34,439 nt of DNA from a virus. This document shows, piece by piece, positions 1-34,439 of the stretch. A program made the translations under genes and the position numbers. The DNA lies in the IMG/VR virus record IMGVR_UViG_3300032087_002527, positions 1 to 34,439 of that record; one strand, given 5' to 3'. Under the pieces are notes generated by a model, which made no database searches, had not been told where the DNA came from, and saw only the letters and a list, made by a program, of their open reading frames with translations. Within the stretch, counting starts at the first letter, position 1; every line of letters starts with the position of its first letter.

Positions 1-3
1 TAC

Positions 4-64
4 ATAACTCTCAGTAATGGCGTCAAGGGGGGTGCTTGACGCTACGCGCACCAATCGTCATACT
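4..64 (+). promoter_or_regulatory. Early promoter with two operator-like elements (left copy of the lysogeny switch)
   Basis: A sigma70-type promoter is visible: -35 TTGACG at 36-41, a 17-bp spacer, and -10 CATACT at 59-64, 45 bp ahead of the first gene. A perfect inverted repeat (GCGTCAAG at 20-27, CTTGACGC at 35-42) covers the -35 box, as a repressor operator would. A second element, the pseudo-palindrome ATAACTCTCAGTAAT, lies at 4-18 and recurs in the integrase promoter. Both elements are unchanged in the other copy at 33130-33190, while the loop between the inverted-repeat arms has changed. The repressor that belongs to this copy would lie to the left, outside the window. Confidence 0.72.
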
Positions 65-108
65 ACATCACGTTTGTGTAATTTTCGTCAGCAAGGAGGA
101 TAGGCACT

Positions 109-636
109 GTGGGGCAGATTGTAAGACTCGACGACTATCAGGTCGTCGATCCGTTGGAAGATCCGAAGATCAGAAAGTTGGTAAAAGCGTGGTTCGTGCA
201 CGGCGTAAATGGCGGTCTTGAGCGTTACGGGTCGGTGATCCTGACGCCGTTCTTAGGGTCGGTGGAGACAGACCCGCTGGCAGGTATGCGTCTGCAAATA
301 CCAAAGCTAATGTTGTGTTTGCAGCCGGTCGTTGCGGCCTGGGGTCACGACGAATACTGCGACGCGGAGTATGTGAATCGTTGCATACCAGACACGCCGC
401 GCCTCGTTGTTCAAGAATTTCTCAACGAGCTGGTGCTGATCAACGCGATCACGCAACACGAAGAAGACGGAAGCATCTACTATCGACCCAGCAGGCGATC
501 GCTGTATCGATGGCTTGAAATCGTCGGAATGTTGCGTGAGGCATGGGTATCTATGCGAGAAGAAGCGCCCGGTGGCCTCGAAGCGGCTCTCGCAGATCGC
601 GAGTGGGTGTCGATCGAGCTACCAATCCCAAAATAA
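109..636 (+). CDS. Conserved early protein of unknown function, 175 aa (copy 1)
   Basis: This is the first gene of the early operon, read from a GTG at 109. A strong ribosome site (AAGGAGGA, 93-100) lies 8 bases upstream, which fixes the start. I do not recognise the family. The protein is soluble and has no membrane segment. Its C-terminal half, with RPSRRSLYRWLEIVGMLREA around residues 130-150, looks helical and basic, so a winged-helix DNA-binding role is possible but unproven. The position just after the repressor-controlled promoter suits an early regulator or replication factor. The partner at 33235-33762 is 89% identical, so the protein is under selection in both units. Confidence 0.85.
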   Translation: MGQIVRLDDYQVVDPLEDPKIRKLVKAWFVHGVNGGLERYGSVILTPFLGSVETDPLAGMRLQIPKLMLCLQPVVAAWGHDEYCDAEYVNRCIPDTPRLVVQEFLNELVLINAITQHEEDGSIYYRPSRRSLYRWLEIVGMLREAWVSMREEAPGGLEAALADREWVSIELPIPK

Positions 637-656
637 TATTAGAATAGGAATAGAAA

Positions 657-1046
657 ATGGAATTACATGAGAGCATTCGAGCGGCGCGCCAACGCAAAAA
701 AATGAGCGGCGCCGTTGTTGCCAAGCACCTAGACATGAGCGCAGGTGCATACCGACGTTATGAGCGAGGCGAGGTCGTGCCATCGGCGACGACGATCCTT
801 GAGCTTGCCGGCTTGCTGGACTGCAGCGCCACCGCGCTGATGTTGACTGGCGGTCTGGAAGAAGAGCCGCCGCCGCGGAACAACATACAGCAACTAGACC
901 TGGAGCTGCGCGAGGGCGAGACAATGCAGATCGTGATCAACGCGACCGTCAAGCCAGCAGCGATAAGGCCACAGCCGAACGGCGATACTTACAAGCCGAG
1001 ACGACTGGCGACAGAGCGCAGGCAACAAGCCCTTAAAAAAGCATAA
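657..1046 (+). CDS. XRE-family helix-turn-helix regulator, 129 aa (copy 1)
   Basis: The N-terminal 60 residues form a classic Cro/CI-type HTH: the IRAARQRKKMSG start, then a VAKHLDMSAGAYRRYERG helix-turn-helix around residues 20-39, then a PSATTILELAGLL helix. The C-terminal half has an acidic stretch, an LELREGETMQIVINATVKP segment that could be a small strand-rich dimerisation domain, and a basic tail. The start is ATG at 657, 20 bp after the previous stop, with a weak ribosome site. It is the second gene of the early operon, so it may act as a Cro-like or CII-like regulator of lysogeny or of the next promoter at 1094. Copy 2 lies at 33783-34172. Confidence 0.9.
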   Translation: MELHESIRAARQRKKMSGAVVAKHLDMSAGAYRRYERGEVVPSATTILELAGLLDCSATALMLTGGLEEEPPPRNNIQQLDLELREGETMQIVINATVKPAAIRPQPNGDTYKPRRLATERRQQALKKA

Positions 1047-1093
1047 CGCCGCAAGCACCATCGCTATCGACAGGAACCATCAAAAATAATTAG

Positions 1094-1148
1094 TTGACGT
1101 TTCTGTAACCTTTTAATTATAACCGTGCGCTATCAGCACGGAGGTTAC
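1094..1148 (+). promoter_or_regulatory. Promoter of the recombination genes with an RBS-overlapping hairpin
   Basis: A -35 TTGACG (1094-1099) and a -10 TATAAC (1118-1123) are separated by 18 bp in an AT-rich stretch between the XRE gene and the exonuclease. Just downstream, CCGTGC (1123-1128) can pair with GCACGG (1136-1141), which occludes the first part of the GGAGG ribosome site at 1140-1144. In the second copy the partner strand is GCATGG, which turns one G-C pair into a G-U pair and keeps the fold. A second inverted pair (GTAACC 1105-1110, GGTTAC 1143-1148) also exists, but its left arm lies upstream of the -10 and would not be transcribed from this promoter. Confidence 0.6.
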
Positions 1149-1154
1149 TGAGAC

Positions 1155-2090
1155 GTGACAGGTTTTGATGAACTACCCGCTTGGGCCACGCTGTTCAATT
1201 TCTCAGCTCACAGCCCGAGCGGGATCTCCCGCCCAAACTGCAAAGAGTTCTTTGAAAAAGTAGTCGCCCGGCCGCAGCGTCTGTACGCCCCGCCGGGTTG
1301 TCGCATGAACGCCGGCAAAGCCGCCGAGCAGTACGCCAAGGACATCGTGCTGAACGGTGACGACCAAGGCGAGGCGTTCCGCAAGGCGGTCAGTTTTTTC
1401 GATGAACACGAGATCCTCGAACACGACCCGCAGGACCGCGATCGCTTCTCGGTGATTCGCGACGGCATCTACGACATCCCCCTCAGTAAGGAAGAGAAGG
1501 AAGCAGGCGCGGTGCAGATCAGCGGCACCGTGCTGGAGCTGACCTGCAAGCACACAGCCGAAGGTCTGGCAGAGGCCACCCGCGGTGCCAACCAAATAGA
1601 GGATGGCCGCTGGGTGTCCGTGCAACTAGACGACGTCGAGCTGGACTTCATCGGCGAGATCGATGTCGAGGCGCAGGGCGTGGTCGAGATCAAGACAAAG
1701 TGGCCGACATTATCAAGCACCGCCAAGCGCGGCTGGCTGGTCAATTCATTGCCGGCGCGGCCTGACCCCAACCACGTCGGGCAGGTCGCGCTCTACTGGA
1801 AGTATCTGCGCGGCATCTCGGACAACGTGCCGGTGCGGATCGTCTACGCAAATTGCAAAGGCTTCCGGGTATTCGACAGCCGTGACTGCGACGAGCTGTC
1901 CGAAGCGAACTTGAATCAGGCGCTTGAGCGGATGCGGACGGTAGCCCGTACCCGCGAGGCCCTGATGAAAGCAGCGGGGTCGATCGAAGAGCTGTTCGCT
2001 CTCGTCGCCCCGGATTTTTCACACTTTATGTGGAAGGACGTGCCGCCGGCATACCGGCAGGCAGCAGAGGAGAAATGGAGAAGCAAATGA
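1155..2090 (+). CDS. PD-(D/E)XK exonuclease of the phage recombination module, 311 aa
   Basis: The protein is read as a RecB/YqaJ-like nuclease. The metal-binding core is visible as a D at residue 170 (FIGEID), a strand with E178-I-K180 (VVEIKTKW), and a Q-xxx-Y motif at 210-214 (GQVALY). This is the usual arrangement of lambda-exonuclease and RecB-family nucleases. The start is GTG at 1155, with GGAGG at 1140-1144. The ERF annealing protein is encoded downstream in the same operon, so the pair probably forms a two-component single-strand-annealing recombinase: the nuclease resects double-stranded ends and ERF anneals them. The exact nuclease subfamily is uncertain. The second copy begins at 34281 and is cut by the window end. 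Confidence 0.82.
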   Translation: MTGFDELPAWATLFNFSAHSPSGISRPNCKEFFEKVVARPQRLYAPPGCRMNAGKAAEQYAKDIVLNGDDQGEAFRKAVSFFDEHEILEHDPQDRDRFSVIRDGIYDIPLSKEEKEAGAVQISGTVLELTCKHTAEGLAEATRGANQIEDGRWVSVQLDDVELDFIGEIDVEAQGVVEIKTKWPTLSSTAKRGWLVNSLPARPDPNHVGQVALYWKYLRGISDNVPVRIVYANCKGFRVFDSRDCDELSEANLNQALERMRTVARTREALMKAAGSIEELFALVAPDFSHFMWKDVPPAYRQAAEEKWRSK

Positions 2091-21906: not shown

Positions 21907-22956
21907 TTACTCGTTACAGGCGATTTCAACGACTTTGTCTTCTTCCATCCGGGTCGCCCCGAAGGTCGCGCAGTAGTACACCTGCGTGGAATAAGACTTG
22001 TCGCTGCGCTCATCGATGCGAGCCATGACGTCCTTACCGACCGCCAGCTTGCAGCCATCCTGCGCCCATGCGTAGCAAAGGCGAGAAGTGCCGTCGTCGC
22101 TGAGACGGTTCGAGACGATGAACTCGAATCCGACAAACGTGTTGATGTCACCTTGTACCAATGCCTTCCGTCACACTTCGGCTTTCGCCGCCGGCTTGCG
22201 CCGTTCGTGCGCTGGACTTTCTCTTCATCTCAAGGAGATGCCGCCCGTCAAGTCTCTACACCTTCCCATCGCTGGGCTTGGCTCGGGATTAGCAGTTAAG
22301 CCTTCCCCGAATTTGAGCGGTTTTCGTCTGACCGTCGCCGATCAGATAGGCAAAGTGTTTACCGTATTGAAATCACTGGAAGTGACAGTCGTTGAGTTGA
22401 GCAGGTCTTCGATCTGCTCGGGCGATACAACGATGTACCGCTTGATCGACGGATCGACCGAGTTGGCGTCGAGCTTCTTCTTAGCTTCGACCAGCTTGGC
22501 AATCGTCAGTCCGGCGGAACCGTGTGCGATCTTCTGACCAGCCGGGAACGACGTTGACGTCGTGCCTTCCTTGCCAGTTTTCGCGGTGCCACCAAGGGCG
22601 TCGATGATGACATCGTCCATCGCCCGACCGATCGCCGCCGCAGCCGCACGGGCATACGAAGACGTGGGGTCGATCAACATGCGGACCTTGTCAGCATCGT
22701 CAATGAGGTCGGCCCACTCATACGTTGTGAGACTGACCATGCGCCGGCTGTGCGGCGTTTCCACCAGCGGCGTATCGCCGTGGCGGGACGTGCGCGCAAC
22801 CGCAGCGGCCTCTCCGACCTGGTCGAAGAAAGCCTTTTCGCCGGTGACACTTTCCGTATCAACGGCCCCTCTCAGCAAACTTCCCATTTGCTGAGAGAGC
22901 ATTGCCACGTTCGATGAAAACTGGTTCACGAACGCGGTAGTGACCTGAGTTGACAT
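21907..22956 (-). CDS. Major capsid protein, interrupted by a group I intron; spliced product 285 aa
   Basis: Exon 1 is 22956-22361 and exon 2 is 22168-21907. Exon 1 gives the capsid N-terminus (TTAFVNQFSSNVAMLSQQMG, MSTQ start) and the HK97-fold-like body, with VVSPEQIEDLL near its end. Unspliced reading ends after LPI at a TGA inside the intron and yields 204 residues. Splicing joins codon GT|G and gives NTV-KALVQGDINTFVGFEF, the conserved C-terminal strand and loop of this capsid family, and an 86-residue tail from exon 2. The ATG at 22956 has GTAGGAG 8 bases upstream. Scaffold lies upstream and the decoration-like protein downstream, as in other podophages. The spliced frame needs no sequence correction. 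Confidence 0.9.
22169..22360 (-). ncRNA. Self-splicing group I intron in the capsid gene, 192 nt, no ORF
   Basis: All core elements are readable on the minus strand (n = nt from 22360). P1: exon AUACGGU with 10-15, a U-G pair at the splice site and one bulged C. P10: exon 2 GAAG with CUUU 6-9. P2: 16-21/28-33. P3: CCGCTC 41-46 with GGGCGG 115-120. P4: TCGGG 51-55 with CCCGA 74-78. P6a: 85-87/94-96. P7: GACT 107-110 with AGTC 143-146. P8: CATCTC 121-126 with GAGATG 130-135. P9: 150-154/185-189, enclosing two stems with GCAA and GAAA loops. The P/Q/R/S-like strings AAATTCGGGGAA, AATCCCGAGCCAAGC, TGTAGAGACT and AAGAGAAAGTCC are close to consensus. It ends in G. No homing endonuclease is encoded. 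Confidence 0.92.
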
Positions 22957-31007: not shown

Positions 31008-31528
31008 GTGTCGTCGTCCTGGCGCACAATCTTGAGCTTGTAGCCCATGTTGTTCAGCACCGCCTCGAAGGTCTGCAGGCTCGGCGACCGCGTGTACCGC
31101 CAGTCGCTGATCGTGTTTGGCGACACGCCGCTGCCCTCGGCCACGTCTTTGATCATCAGGCGGTCGCGGTTCATCATGGTGTACAGCTCACGCACCAGCG
31201 GCGGCGCCTTGTCCGGCACCGGCAGCTTGCCTGCCCACTTGTTGCGGCCGCGACCAGCAGCCAGGTTCCGCATCGATCGCCGCTTGTTCATCTGCGGATT
31301 GCGTGGCGACACACACGGCTGCAGGATTGCCTCGTGCGTGACGCCAAAGATCTGCGAGAATTTGTTGACGTGACCGCCGTGCAGCTTCATGCGGCCTGTC
31401 TCCAAGGCGCGTATCGTCCACGGGTCAAGCCGTGCGATCGAGGCTAACTGTTCAACCGACCACCCTGCCTTGCCGCGATACTTCACGACGCTGTTAGGGT
31501 GCGGACGCGGGTCGCCGACCTTACCCAT
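31004..31528 (-). CDS. Double helix-turn-helix protein, 174 aa
   Basis: Two HTH segments are visible. One lies near the N-terminus (WSVEQLASIARLDPWTIRALETG, about 23-45). The second lies near the C-terminus (LMIKDVAEGSGVSPNTISDWRY, about 123-144) and is followed by a helix with SLQTFEAVLNNMGYKL. Both are of the XRE kind. The middle is basic and glycine-rich. It probably binds two DNA sites or loops DNA, and may regulate this accessory operon or the lysogeny switch. It overlaps the VRR-NUC gene by 8 bases. Confidence 0.8.
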   Translation of the reverse strand: MGKVGDPRPHPNSVVKYRGKAGWSVEQLASIARLDPWTIRALETGRMKLHGGHVNKFSQIFGVTHEAILQPCVSPRNPQMNKRRSMRNLAAGRGRNKWAGKLPVPDKAPPLVRELYTMMNRDRLMIKDVAEGSGVSPNTISDWRYTRSPSLQTFEAVLNNMGYKLKIVRQDDDT

Positions 31529-31889
31529 CGCGCAGCTCGACGTATTGCATCAGCGTGACACGCGCCTCATCGATCGATCGCACCACGGCGACGTAGCAGC
31601 CTGCGCCAGTGAGCTGGCCGATCATCTGCTTCTGGTTGTCAGACAGTCGTCCTTTGGCTGTCTTGATCTCCAAGAATATGGGCGCCCAGGGCGTCGTTCC
31701 GCGCCACCAGGTAGGGTTGACGAATATCTCTATGTCAGGCCAGCCAGCGCGCACGCCTAGCCGCTTCTGCTGCATCCTGTACTGGACTTTATGCCTGCCC
31801 TCATTGGGGCTGTGATGGAACACCGAGCCGTCAGGCAGCGCGACCTGTAGCCAGTCCACGATCGCCTGGTGGATCTCGCGCTCAGACAC
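31521..31889 (-). CDS. VRR-NUC domain nuclease, 122 aa
   Basis: This is a small stand-alone VRR-NUC nuclease. It has the family order: an N-terminal helix (REIHQAIVDWLQVAL), then GWPD at 49-52, a strand with E74-x-K76 (FLEIKTAKGRLSDNQKQ) and Q86, and a strand-helix end with GAGCYVAVVRS. The D, E and K form the PD-(D/E)XK active site. Such proteins act on branched or damaged DNA. It starts at GTG 31889 inside the end of the DpdA-like gene. A role in phage recombination or packaging is possible. Confidence 0.92.
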   Translation of the reverse strand: MSEREIHQAIVDWLQVALPDGSVFHHSPNEGRHKVQYRMQQKRLGVRAGWPDIEIFVNPTWWRGTTPWAPIFLEIKTAKGRLSDNQKQMIGQLTGAGCYVAVVRSIDEARVTLMQYVELRDG

Positions 31890-32475
31890 TGAATAAACTC
31901 GGCTGGCGGTTCAAACGATCAAGCCAATCGACAACGATGGCTGTGTTCTTATCTGGCCCAAACGCAATGAACGTGCCGTCCACGCTGTGACAGCCAAGCA
32001 CCGCAGCGGCGCGTATGCGCTGCCAGGTATTTACGCGGCCCATGTGAACGTGCTTGCGCTGACGCCGCGCCTCGCTGATCAGGTCTGCCGCAGCTCCTGA
32101 TAATTTCCACTCCGTGCTGCCGCCGATGAAAAGCGCATCGAAGTCCGGCCACGGCAGGCTGTCAGGGGTTGCGCCGTCCTGGCCTACATATGCCGCAGCA
32201 AAGCCCAGCCGCCTTATTTTTGGCAGCATCGGCGCGGCACGGTCTAGCGTGCCTGCAGCATCTCCAACGACGTCGGGCGCGACCGCAAACAAGCAGCCAG
32301 CTCTGTTGTGACGGTCAAGCCAAGACAAAAAACCGTCATCGCTATATGTGTCTGGCCGCGCATAACAGCCGTTATCAGCGGCCCATACTTCGTGGCCGTG
32401 CTGGCGCTCCCCGCCGCCAAACGACAGCATGACGCCGATGCGCGGGTCGGCCACCGCTTTGCCGCTAAGATACAT
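31882..32475 (-). CDS. TGT/DpdA-like enzyme, candidate 7-deazaguanine DNA transglycosylase, 197 aa
   Basis: The protein looks like a small TIM-barrel enzyme of the tRNA-guanine transglycosylase superfamily, as annotated in several phages. It has an ADNG motif near residues 33-36, APDVVGD at 67-73, VGQDGA near 98-102, FIGGSTEWKL at 116-125, HMGRVN near 144-149 and SVDGT near 164-168. In TGTs, Asp residues at comparable places perform base exchange. DpdA members of the superfamily insert preQ0 into DNA. The neighbour is a YhhQ-like transporter, which supports a 7-deazaguanine role. Catalysis on DNA is inferred. ATG 32475 is preferred over a GTG one codon earlier. Confidence 0.6.
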   Translation of the reverse strand: MYLSGKAVADPRIGVMLSFGGGERQHGHEVWAADNGCYARPDTYSDDGFLSWLDRHNRAGCLFAVAPDVVGDAAGTLDRAAPMLPKIRRLGFAAAYVGQDGATPDSLPWPDFDALFIGGSTEWKLSGAAADLISEARRQRKHVHMGRVNTWQRIRAAAVLGCHSVDGTFIAFGPDKNTAIVVDWLDRLNRQPSLFSV

Positions 32476-32935
32476 CACGCTGCCTTACCAGTCGCCAGAC
32501 GACGACGGCACCAATCAGCTTTGCGGCTGTCATCAACGCGCAGCCCAGCCAACTGAAATGCCCTATCATCAGCAGAAACACCGCGCTATCGAGCGGCGTG
32601 CTAACGACACTCGAAATTAGTATTCGCTGGGCAAAGGGCTTTTTGGTGTACGAATAAACGCCCCAGTCCGCTGCCTCGCTTATTGCGAAAGCGGTGACGC
32701 TGGCGACGGCAACGAAGGGGTCCGCCATCAGGTAGGAAAGCATCCCAGCTGCTGCCATTGCCCACCACACACGATGACCGATAGCCCGTTGAGCATAGTC
32801 TCGCGCGACAAACACAAGACCCACCGCTAAGCTCATTGGTGGAAACATCTCGCCCAGCAGGGGCACCAACGGCACAACGCTGAAGCCGTAATTAACCGCG
32901 ACGATCAGTGCGATGTAGACCGCCGCACTAAACAT
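32465..32935 (-). CDS. yhhQ: YhhQ/VUT-family queuosine-precursor transporter, 156 aa
   Basis: This is a membrane protein with about five to six hydrophobic segments. Conserved family stretches include FPPMSLAVGLVFVARDYAQR, LSYLMADPFVAVASVTAFAI, SEAADWGVYSYTKKP and ISSVVSTPLDSAVFL. YhhQ proteins import queuine-type precursors such as preQ0 or preQ1. Together with the DpdA-like gene that overlaps it by 11 bases, it suggests salvage of a 7-deazaguanine base for phage nucleic acid. The chosen ATG at 32935 is six bases into a longer frame that could use a TTG. It overlaps the repressor gene by 8 bases. Confidence 0.82.
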   Translation of the reverse strand: MFSAAVYIALIVAVNYGFSVVPLVPLLGEMFPPMSLAVGLVFVARDYAQRAIGHRVWWAMAAAGMLSYLMADPFVAVASVTAFAISEAADWGVYSYTKKPFAQRILISSVVSTPLDSAVFLLMIGHFSWLGCALMTAAKLIGAVVVWRLVRQRDVS

Positions 32936-33116
32936 CGACAAAGTCGCGAAGCGTTACCTCGCCCTCGGTCAGCTCCTCGATGCGCTCTAGCAGGTCAAGC
33001 CCCGGCCGACGTTTGTCGCTGCACAGCATCGACAAGAACGGCTGACTGATGCCGAGCCGCACCGCGATCTGGCGCTGCGTCTCAGGCTGCTCATTTATCC
33101 ATTGCGACAGTCTCAT
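32928..33116 (-). CDS. Small Cro/CI-like repressor, 62 aa
   Basis: An N-terminal helix (RLSQWINEQP) leads into the helix-turn-helix QRQIAVRLGISQPFLSMLCS (residues 15-34) and DKRRPGLDLLERIEELTEG. This is almost only the DNA-binding domain of a lambda-Cro/CI-like protein and is too short for a separate oligomerisation or cleavage domain. The gene is divergent from the early promoter, the place of a lysogeny repressor. The start is uncertain: ATG 33116 is preferred. ATG 33131 lies in the operator, and the ribosome site is weak in both cases. It leads the accessory operon of nuclease, transglycosylase and transporter. Confidence 0.8.
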   Translation of the reverse strand: MRLSQWINEQPETQRQIAVRLGISQPFLSMLCSDKRRPGLDLLERIEELTEGEVTLRDFVDV

Positions 33117-33129
33117 GGTGCGGACGTAC

Positions 33130-33190
33130 ATAACTCTCAGTAATGGCGTCAAGGGGGTTGCTTGACGCTACGCGCACCAATCGTCATACT
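33130..33190 (+). promoter_or_regulatory. Divergent lysogeny switch: early promoter, inverted repeat and 15-bp operator
   Basis: The early promoter repeats the left copy: -35 TTGACG at 33162-33167 and -10 CATACT at 33185-33190. The inverted repeat GCGTCAAG/CTTGACGC lies at 33146-33153 and 33161-33168, and ATAACTCTCAGTAAT at 33130-33144. The 15-bp element lies 14 bp before the repressor ATG on the other strand, so a protein bound there may also control the repressor. A clear promoter for the repressor was not found: TTGACG occurs on the minus strand in the left arm, but no -10 stands at 16-18 bp. Confidence 0.72.
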
Positions 33191-33234
33191 ACATCACGTT
33201 TGTGTAATTTTCGTCAGAAAGGAGTATAGGTGCT

Positions 33235-33762
33235 GTGGGACAGATTGTTAGATTTGACGACTATCAGGTCGCCGATCCGTTGGAAGATCCGAAGATAAGA
33301 AAGTTGGTCAAAGCGTGGTTCGTCCACGGCGTAAATGGCGGCTTTGAGCGTTACGGGTTGGTGATCCTGACGCCGTTCTTAGGGTCGGTGGAGACAGACC
33401 CGCTGGCCGGTCTGCGTCTTTCGATACCAAAGCTAATGTTGTGTCTGCAGCCAGTTGTTGCGGCTTGGGGTCACGACGAATACTGCGACACGGAGTATGT
33501 GCAGCGTTGCATACCAGACACGCCGCGCCTCGTCGTGCAGGAGTTTCTCAACGAGCTGGTGCAGGTTGACGCGATCACGCAACACGAAGAAGACGGCTGC
33601 ATCTACTATCGACCCAGCAGACGATCGTTATATCGATGGCTTGAGATCGTCGGCATGATTCGCGAAGCATGGGTAGCCGTTAAAGAAGAAGCACCCGGTG
33701 GCATCGAAGCAGCTCTCGAAGATCGCGAGTGGGTGTCGATCGAGCTGCCAATCCCAGAGTAA
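33235..33762 (+). CDS. Conserved early protein of unknown function, 175 aa (copy 2)
   Basis: This is the second-unit version of the gene at 109-636, 89% identical in protein with no gap. The GTG start and the AAGGAG ribosome site are kept. The changes are mostly conservative (L/I, V/A, R/K) and cluster outside the central HGVNGG and PFLGSVETDPLAG stretches, which points to those as functional. It directly follows the switch region shown here. Confidence 0.85.
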   Translation: MGQIVRFDDYQVADPLEDPKIRKLVKAWFVHGVNGGFERYGLVILTPFLGSVETDPLAGLRLSIPKLMLCLQPVVAAWGHDEYCDTEYVQRCIPDTPRLVVQEFLNELVQVDAITQHEEDGCIYYRPSRRSLYRWLEIVGMIREAWVAVKEEAPGGIEAALEDREWVSIELPIPE

Positions 33763-33782
33763 TATCAAAACAGGAAGAGAAA

Positions 33783-34172
33783 ATGGAATTACATGAGAGC
33801 ATACGAGCGGCACGCCAACGCAAAAAAATAAGCGGCGCCGTCATTGCCGGGCACCTAGACATGAGCGCGGGTGCCTACCGACGTTACGAACGAGGCGAGG
33901 TCGTGCCATCGGCAACCACGATCATCGAGCTTGCCGGCCTGCTGGACTGCAGCCCCACCGCGCTGATGTTGACTGGCGGTTTGGAAGAAGATCCGCCGCC
34001 GCGCAACAACGTTCAGCAACTAGACCTGGAGCTGCGCGAGGGCGAGACGATGCAGATCGTGATCAACGCGACCGTCAAGCCGGCAGCGATCAAGCCGCAG
34101 CCAAACGGCGATACCTATAAGCCGAGACGACTGGCGGGAGAGTCCAAGCGACAAGCCCTCAAAAAGATATAA
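33783..34172 (+). CDS. XRE-family regulator, 129 aa (copy 2)
   Basis: This is the counterpart of 657-1046. The recognition region (LDMSAGAYRRYERGEVVPSATT) is unchanged between the copies, while the basic tail and a few core positions differ (for example K to G and M to I near residues 16-23). Both proteins should therefore recognise the same operator. The start is ATG 33783, with GAAGAG upstream. Confidence 0.9.
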   Translation: MELHESIRAARQRKKISGAVIAGHLDMSAGAYRRYERGEVVPSATTIIELAGLLDCSPTALMLTGGLEEDPPPRNNVQQLDLELREGETMQIVINATVKPAAIKPQPNGDTYKPRRLAGESKRQALKKI

Positions 34173-34219
34173 CGCGACAAGCACTATCGCTATCGACAAG
34201 AACCATCAAAAATAATTAG

Positions 34220-34274
34220 TTGACGCTTCTGTAACCTTTTAATTATAACCGTGCGCTATAAGCATGGAGGTTAC
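34220..34274 (+). promoter_or_regulatory. Second copy of the recombination-gene promoter and hairpin
   Basis: The -35 TTGACG (34220-34225) and -10 TATAAC (34244-34249) keep the 18-bp spacing. The hairpin after the -10 keeps its fold through a G-U pair (CCGTGC with GCATGG). The ribosome site GGAGG follows. Confidence 0.6.
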
Positions 34275-34280
34275 TGAGAC

Positions 34281-34439
34281 GTGACAGGTTTCGATGAACT
34301 ACCCTCTTGGGCCACGCTGTTTAATTTCTCAGCGCACAGCCCGAGCGGGACTTCTCGCCCAAACTGCAAAGAGTTCTTTGAAAAAGTAGTCGCCCGGCCG
34401 CAGCGTCTGTACGCCCCGCCGGGTTGTCGCATGAACGCC
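34281..34439 (+). CDS. PD-(D/E)XK exonuclease, N-terminal part (copy 2, cut by window end)
   Basis: The GTG start at 34281 corresponds to 1155. The first 53 codons match the left copy closely (only A9S and I24T seen) and run off the window. The catalytic part is not included. The near identity here, higher than in the first two genes, suggests stronger constraint or recent exchange. Confidence 0.85.
   Translation, partial: MTGFDELPSWATLFNFSAHSPSGTSRPNCKEFFEKVVARPQRLYAPPGCRMNA

What the first reader, a model, noticed from the sequence alone, without database searches (positions are those of the whole stretch)
31882..32935. Two-gene salvage cassette for a 7-deazaguanine base (YhhQ transporter plus DpdA/TGT-like enzyme)
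Seen: a YhhQ/VUT-like membrane protein and a small TGT-superfamily-like protein overlap in one operon. Known: YhhQ imports queuosine precursors, and DpdA enzymes exchange guanine for preQ0-type bases in DNA and protect phages against restriction. Inference: this phage makes no precursor but imports it and inserts it. The gene position right after the repressor suggests expression from the lysogen, so a prophage could also modify host nucleic acid. The DpdA-like protein is much shorter than classical TGTs, which makes its substrate an open question.
Basis: partly seen in the sequence, partly recalled or inferred. Interest (0 to 1): 0.72.

Follow-up and report, generated by a model that had tools for sequence, protein, structure and literature searches.

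The report
Phage salvage-and-insert cassette for deazaguanine bases
This phage carries two overlapping genes, a transporter of the deazaguanine-importing family and an unusually small base-swapping enzyme of the tRNA-guanine transglycosylase fold; the pair recurs in many phages that cannot make the base themselves, which suggests that they import a modified guanine and put it into nucleic acid, most likely their own DNA.

Summary
On the minus strand a yhhQ-type transporter gene (32465-32935) overlaps by 14 nt a 198-aa gene (31882-32478). The 198-aa protein has no Pfam or NCBIfam match (PHROG 15826, 'unknown function'), but its AlphaFold model (pLDDT 93) matches tRNA-guanine transglycosylases over 193 of 198 residues (Z 15.4), and the pocket residues have counterparts (D35, D69, Q100, G119-G120, nucleophile D167), practically invariant in 116 dereplicated sequences. 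The zinc site and C-terminal part are missing. Of 89 dereplicated viral lineages of this 'mini-DpdA', 58 have yhhQ next door, 11 have queC/D/E instead, none has both, 20 have neither. Conversely, 75 of 80 viral yhhQ loci have a TGT-like gene directly downstream. The window is in effect a complete circular genome of about 33.1 kb without biosynthesis genes. Best reading: import plus base exchange, probably into phage DNA. DpdA, phage YhhQ and the label 'DpdA-like' were known; the minimal enzyme as a coherent subfamily, its tight pairing with YhhQ and its alternation with biosynthesis genes seem new. Substrate (DNA or RNA) and base are untested. Expression from the lysogen is not supported.

The parts
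32465..32935 (-). yhhQ-type (QPTR/COG1738, Vut_1) membrane transporter, ATG at 32935 (TTG alternative at 32941)
   Evidence: Vut_1 2e-5, TIGR00697 3e-6 (below curated cut-offs), PHROG 4899 2e-35; all 38 aligned members match Vut_1; helical model pLDDT 93.6
31882..32478 (-). mini-DpdA: minimal TGT-fold enzyme, 198 aa (GTG 32478) or 197 aa (ATG 32475)
   Evidence: PHROG 15826 1e-60; AF2 model pLDDT 93.4; TGT fold Z 15.4 over 193 residues; pocket residues invariant
31977..31979 (-). codon of D167, counterpart of the TGT nucleophile D280
   Evidence: position computed from the ORF; invariant in 115 of 115 sequences that cover it
32928..33152 (-). 74-aa HTH_3 regulator, first gene of the leftward unit, overlaps yhhQ; role (repressor or Cro-like) undecided
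   Evidence: HTH_3 3e-7, above cut-off
31521..31889 (-). VRR-NUC nuclease overlapping the 3' end of mini-dpdA; in the same unit but not a general partner
   Evidence: PF08774 3e-9; only 10 ORF hits in 213 loci
1..1313 (.). left copy of the terminal direct repeat that shows the genome is circular or circularly permuted (other copy 33127-34439)
   Evidence: 91% identity over 1313 bp; contig L002 bridges the junction

Best explanation
A two-gene salvage-and-insert cassette. The YhhQ-type transporter brings a 7-deazaguanine base (preQ0, preQ1 or a relative) into the infected cell, and the mini-DpdA exchanges it for guanine by the TGT double-displacement reaction: D167 attacks the glycosidic carbon and guanine leaves, D35 acts as acid/base, and D69, Q100 and G119-G120 hold the base. 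The phage carries no gene to make the base, so it depends on outside or host supply. The most likely acceptor is phage DNA, giving protection from restriction enzymes. Shown here: the genes, the predicted fold, the conserved pocket residues, the recurrent pairing, the alternation with biosynthesis genes and the absence of such genes from this genome. Inferred: transport, the exchange reaction, the base, the DNA target and the protective role.
For: TGT fold, all 50 listed PDB matches TGT, Z 15.4, rmsd 2.9, 193/198 residues; DpdA 7ui4 among Foldseek hits; profile match to classical phage DpdA 96.2%, E 2.8e-9; pocket residues invariant over 116 sequences; yhhQ in 58 of 89 viral lineages, que genes in 11, both in 0, Fisher p 2.3e-6; whole-record Pfam searches agree, 34 / 7 / 0 of 50; que state changes 11 times on the tree, at least 5 forced; 75 of 80 viral yhhQ loci followed by a TGT-like gene, no que genes near any of 34 yhhQ clusters; classical DpdA absent from yhhQ+ records searched; DNA methyltransferases and SSB among the commonest neighbours, one fusion to a PD-(D/E)XK nuclease.
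Against: 20 of 89 lineages have neither importer nor que genes in reach. Sequence comparison with bacterial TGT itself failed. No zinc site or C-terminal part. Host QueC content does not explain who carries yhhQ. Independent-pairs test on the tree not significant, too few pairs. DNA as acceptor rests on kinship and context only, without a control set for the neighbour counts.
Confidence: 0.66

Rival explanations
1. The mini-DpdA acts on tRNA: the phage salvages preQ1 or queuine and modifies the wobble guanine of host tRNA during infection.
For: The closest solved folds are tRNA-guanine transglycosylases. YhhQ-type transporters serve tRNA queuosine in bacteria (PMC5372724).
Against: By sequence the nearest relatives are phage DpdA, not TGT. 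The zinc site and C-terminal part of TGT are missing. No tRNA genes in the window. Neighbours are DNA methyltransferases and SSB.
Confidence: 0.14
2. The mini-DpdA is not an insertase but uses its TGT pocket to cleave or exchange the base on free nucleosides or nucleotides, feeding a salvage pool or a modified dGTP.
For: Only the barrel core remains, with no obvious part for gripping a nucleic acid. Some phages hold a classical DpdA as well.
Against: In the yhhQ+ records searched there is no classical DpdA or TGT to use such a product. The acid/base and nucleophile positions are all kept.
Confidence: 0.1
3. The transporter and the TGT-like protein are neighbours by shared mobility only; YhhQ here imports another compound.
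For: COG1738 is not homogeneous and may move other purines (PMC5372724). The window protein is below the curated cut-offs.
Against: Recurrent pairing in both search directions, on the same strand in 66 of 66 cases, with both gene orders, and alternation with que genes.
Confidence: 0.05
4. The cassette is expressed from the prophage and modifies host nucleic acid in the lysogen.
For: Temperate phage with integrase; HTH gene just upstream.
Against: The operon points towards terminase and structural genes; the HTH protein is Cro-sized; promoter matches do not exceed shuffles.
Confidence: 0.05

Closest known systems
Phage DpdA (9g, CAjan, Sonali gp87; PHROG 887/7068)
   Same: Same order of motifs, profile match 96.2%; the same genomes may carry yhhQ (CAjan).
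   Different: About 300 aa against 198; another PHROG; Q instead of H at the fourth motif; classical enzymes usually travel with folE-queD-queE-queC, mini-DpdA mostly with yhhQ alone.
~230-aa DpdA type next to yhhQ (for example L221-L226; 'queuine tRNA-ribosyltransferase' of Vibrio phage K392)
   Same: Importer directly upstream in most viral contigs found; hit by both profiles; same logic without que genes.
   Different: Longer, scores better with the classical DpdA profile.
Bacterial TGT / DNA preQ0 insertase DpdA (7ui4)
   Same: Barrel fold, catalytic and base-holding positions.
   Different: No zinc-binding part, half the length, no significant sequence match to TGT.
SEA-PHAGES 'DpdA-like tRNA-guanine transglycosylase' (Majeke gp54, Aoka gp40, Sonali gp81)
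   Same: Members of the same family, 47-49% identical to the window protein; a membrane protein of the yhhQ family sits just upstream in Bhagsy, ReqiPine5 and Aoka.
   Different: Annotation only; I found no study of the pairing.
E. coli YhhQ (COG1738/QPTR)
   Same: Vut_1 family.
   Different: Window protein 156-158 aa, below the TIGR00697 cut-off (27 against 51 bits); substrate unknown.

Membership tests
TGT superfamily (TGT/ArcTGT/DpdA) | TGT-type barrel | tested here: met
   Z 15.4 over 193 of 198 residues, all 50 rows TGT
TGT superfamily (TGT/ArcTGT/DpdA) | catalytic and base-recognition residues (D102, D156, Q203, G230, D280 of Z. mobilis) | tested here: met
   D35, D69, Q100, G119-G120, D167 at the matching motifs (mapped by sequence order, not by superposed coordinates), invariant in at least 115 of 116
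Bacterial tRNA-guanine transglycosylase (PF01702) | Pfam TGT model | tested here: not met
   no match for any of 60 members nor in 50 records
Bacterial tRNA-guanine transglycosylase (PF01702) | zinc site and C-terminal subdomain | tested here: not met
   no CxCxxC...H in the 198 residues; absent from the consensus of A2
Phage DpdA (PHROG 887/7068) | sequence kinship to DpdA | tested here: met
   hhalign 96.2%, E 2.8e-9; the ~230-aa type is hit by both profiles
Phage DpdA (PHROG 887/7068) | membership of the DpdA PHROGs | tested here: not met
   falls in PHROG 15826 instead
Phage DpdA (PHROG 887/7068) | inserts a 7-deazaguanine into DNA | not testable with these tools
   needs LC-MS or an assay
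YhhQ / QPTR (COG1738) | Vut_1 family match | tested here: met
   25.4 bits for the window (cut-off 27.2), all 38 aligned members match, 27 of 34 viral records above the cut-off
YhhQ / QPTR (COG1738) | TIGR00697 equivalog cut-off | tested here: not met
   27.1 bits against 50.95
YhhQ / QPTR (COG1738) | transport of preQ0/preQ1 | not testable with these tools
   inferred from the family and from the pairing with TGT-like genes

The most novel reading that the evidence does not exclude
A minimal, zinc-free, barrel-only transglycosylase that works on a substrate no TGT is known to use (free deoxynucleotides, or single-stranded DNA at the fork), so that phages which make no precursor put a scavenged base into DNA by a route different from classical DpdA.
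Probability: 0.13. Interest if true: 0.8.

Novelty: new variant of a known kind. Interest (0 to 1): 0.56.

Why it matters
It proposes a function for two viral families listed as unknown (PHROG 15826 and 4899) and defines unusually small transglycosylases. It offers an answer, for many phages, to a question left open in 2019: where phages with a DpdA but no preQ0 genes get their base. They carry the importer, and lineages without it often carry synthesis genes instead. The 2019 survey saw no correlation between phage YhhQ and any phage group (PMC6884629). It is testable at once: Mycobacterium phages such as Majeke carry the mini-DpdA (the close relative Bhagsy with yhhQ directly upstream) and grow on M. 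smegmatis; that survey reports none of the queuosine genes in Mycobacteria, so modification should depend on precursor in the medium.

Tried and rejected
Sequence search of the PDB with the family profile found no TGT, and hhalign against four bacterial TGTs failed: the sequence link runs through phage DpdA only. No preQ1 riboswitch near the cassettes searched. The idea that yhhQ is carried only in hosts unable to make preQ0 was tested on 32 host genomes and is not borne out: about half of the yhhQ-bearing loci lie in genomes with a strong QueC, and several loci with neither gene lie in genomes without one. VRR-NUC as a third part was rejected as a general partner (10 ORF hits in 213 loci). 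A PAPS-reductase-like neighbour recurs, but in too few lineages to include. The YhhQ model has no significant PDB match; the best are ECF S components FolT and ThiT at E 0.4-0.5.

Full report
What is there. The minus strand of the window's right end carries a run of overlapping genes: a 74-aa HTH_3 protein (33152-32928), a membrane protein (ATG 32935 to 32465), a 198-aa protein (32478-31882), a VRR-NUC nuclease (31889-31521) and a second HTH protein (31528-31004). Neighbouring genes overlap by 8-14 nt, as in one transcription unit. Further left come small genes, then terminase, head-tail adaptor, head and tail genes and an integrase on the same strand: a temperate, probably short-tailed phage. 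The window's ends are a 1313-bp direct repeat, 91% identical, and an independent contig, L002, runs across the junction at 97-99% identity. The record is therefore in effect a complete circular (or circularly permuted) genome of about 33.1 kb, probably closed with reads from two strains. Profiles for QueC, QueD, QueE, FolE and classical DpdA find nothing in it.

The 198-aa protein. It matches only PHROG 15826, 'unknown function', and nothing in NCBIfam or, above chance, in Pfam. Actinobacteriophage annotators call relatives 'DpdA-like tRNA-guanine transglycosylase'. With 60 sequences from the window and IMG/VR, AlphaFold2 gives pLDDT 93.4 and pTM 0.90, with eight strands in order. VIA-align places tRNA-guanine transglycosylases in all 50 rows shown, Z up to 15.4, 191-194 of 198 residues, rmsd about 3 A; Foldseek lists TGTs and the DNA preQ0 insertase DpdA (7ui4) among its best hits, mixed with other barrels. 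Against classical phage DpdA, profile comparison gives 96.2% and E 2.8e-9. Read beside real TGT sequences, the motifs fall in the same order: LTDSGGF / WAADNGCY (D102 to D35); FDECTP / APDVVGD (D156 to D69); GIVQGG / YVGQDG (Q203 to Q100); FDGYAIGG / FDALFIGG (G230 to G119-G120); YLMGVGTPED / HVHMGRVNTWQR; GIDMFDCV / GCHSVDGT (D280 to D167). Residue numbers of the Z. mobilis enzyme are from my own knowledge, and the mapping is by sequence order; I had no coordinates to superpose. Over 115 dereplicated lineages plus the window these residues are practically invariant. The zinc site (CxCxxC...H) and the C-terminal part of TGT are absent. I call the family mini-DpdA.

The transporter. The window protein scores 25.4 bits with Vut_1, slightly under the cut-off, but each of 38 aligned members matches that family, 27 of 34 viral records exceed the cut-off, and a confident helical model was obtained. 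E. coli YhhQ of this family is required for preQ0 and preQ1 salvage (PMC5372724).

The pairing. I collected relatives from IMG/VR with two differently led alignments, from annotated phages and from bacterial genomes, and clustered them at 85% identity. Of 89 clusters with a virus record, 58 have yhhQ within 414 nt, 11 have queC, queD or queE, none has both, 20 have neither; Fisher p 2.3e-6. All 66 yhhQ neighbours, bacterial loci included, lie on the same strand, 57 upstream and 9 downstream, one of the latter (L067) probably an artefact of an open reading frame. Searching 50 whole records with Pfam models gave 34 with Vut_1, 7 with QueC and/or QueD, none with both. Only 3 of 50 have a classical DpdA, all three among those with que genes, and none a Pfam TGT. 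On the family tree the que state changes 11 times for 12 rows, with at least 5 changes forced by supported branches, so the exchange of importer for synthesis genes happened repeatedly. A stricter test with independent pairs had too few usable pairs to be significant, and the tree's backbone is poorly resolved; the Fisher test treats lineages as independent, which they are only in part.

The reverse test. Starting from the transporter, 75 of the 80 best viral yhhQ loci have a TGT-like gene directly downstream on the same strand, gap at most 253 nt: mini-DpdA in 12 and a ~230-aa DpdA type, mostly hit by both profiles, in 63. Of the five others, at least two are cut short by the end of the DNA held (L242, L276). 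None of the 34 yhhQ clusters has folE or queC/D/E within 5 kb. The window's pair is thus one form of a widespread 'importer plus insertase' cassette, and the ~230-aa type bridges mini and classical DpdA. The sample holds relatives of the window's own YhhQ type, not all viral YhhQ: Seurat-type coliphages such as CAjan carry yhhQ inside a full que cluster.

Mechanism. From TGT chemistry (established knowledge) and the conserved pocket, the most likely action is base exchange: guanine is displaced by the imported 7-deazaguanine. DNA is the likelier acceptor: the nearest sequence relatives are phage DpdAs, which act on DNA (PMC6884629); after yhhQ the commonest neighbours are DNA methyltransferases, then SSB besides que genes; one member runs in frame into a PD-(D/E)XK nuclease; the phage has no tRNA genes. 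None of this excludes tRNA or free nucleotides, and the lack of any nucleic-acid-binding appendage keeps the question open. No control set was run for the methyltransferase counts, so they are suggestive only.

What does not fit. About one lineage in five has neither gene set in reach; these could use host-made base, carry the other genes elsewhere, or work differently. The hosts' own QueC does not explain the pattern. A few phages hold both mini and classical enzymes (Sonali, L068, L077; also R29Z and phiG7), where the mini enzyme must be redundant, specialised or decaying; in phiG7 it is split into two ORFs. Sampling favoured relatives close to the query, and IMG/VR records are often fragments.

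Lysogeny. The HTH protein is Cro-sized, divergent from another HTH-bearing rightward unit, and the operon heads towards the late genes; promoter-like matches are about what shuffles give. I regard it as undecided, leaning to lytic expression.

Novelty. DpdA, DNA deazaguanine modification, phage YhhQ and the label 'DpdA-like' are known. The 2019 survey described phages with DpdA and no synthesis genes as perhaps relying on host or uptake, and saw no correlation of YhhQ with any group (PMC6884629). The minimal enzyme as a coherent subfamily, its adjacency to yhhQ and the mutual exclusion with que genes were not found in the open-access library; subscription papers, including a 2023 paper on further phage deazaguanines that I recall but could not open, may hold part of it.

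Noticed in passing
window 22197-22370 (-): Small group I intron (Rfam RF00028, 51 bits) that interrupts the major head protein gene: N-terminal exon ends near 22350 and the reading frame resumes after the intron with DINTFVGFEFIVSNRL.... No homing endonuclease inside.
   Followed up: partly
window 1-1313 and 33127-34439: The two ends are a 91%-identical direct repeat with the same genes, and contig L002 bridges the junction: the record looks like a complete circular genome closed with reads from two strains.
   Followed up: yes
L006:6636-7267; L009:6673-7590; L097:6579-7400; L121:6628-8466: PAPS-reductase-like (ATP pyrophosphatase fold) genes directly next to mini-dpdA in several phages (ReqiPine5 gp02, L006, L097) and in Caballeronia/Paraburkholderia loci; a possible further enzyme acting on the base, or chance.
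   Followed up: partly
L107:5941-6744: A mini-DpdA with an insertion carrying CxxC...CxxC in the loop after the GG motif, in Micromonospora.
   Followed up: no
L082:5917-8508: A mini-DpdA reading in frame into a PD-(D/E)XK nuclease of about 650 aa, with yhhQ upstream.
   Followed up: partly
L013:7657-8303: In Seuratvirus phiG7 a mini-DpdA copy split into two ORFs lies between the DNA polymerase clamp and DNA polymerase genes, in a phage with the whole preQ0 pathway and a classical DpdA.
   Followed up: no
L218:2378-2899: Rhizobium phages (Kleczkowskavirus) have a yhhQ about 55% identical to the window's but no annotated TGT-like gene within the stretch shown; whether they encode one elsewhere was not checked.
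   Followed up: no
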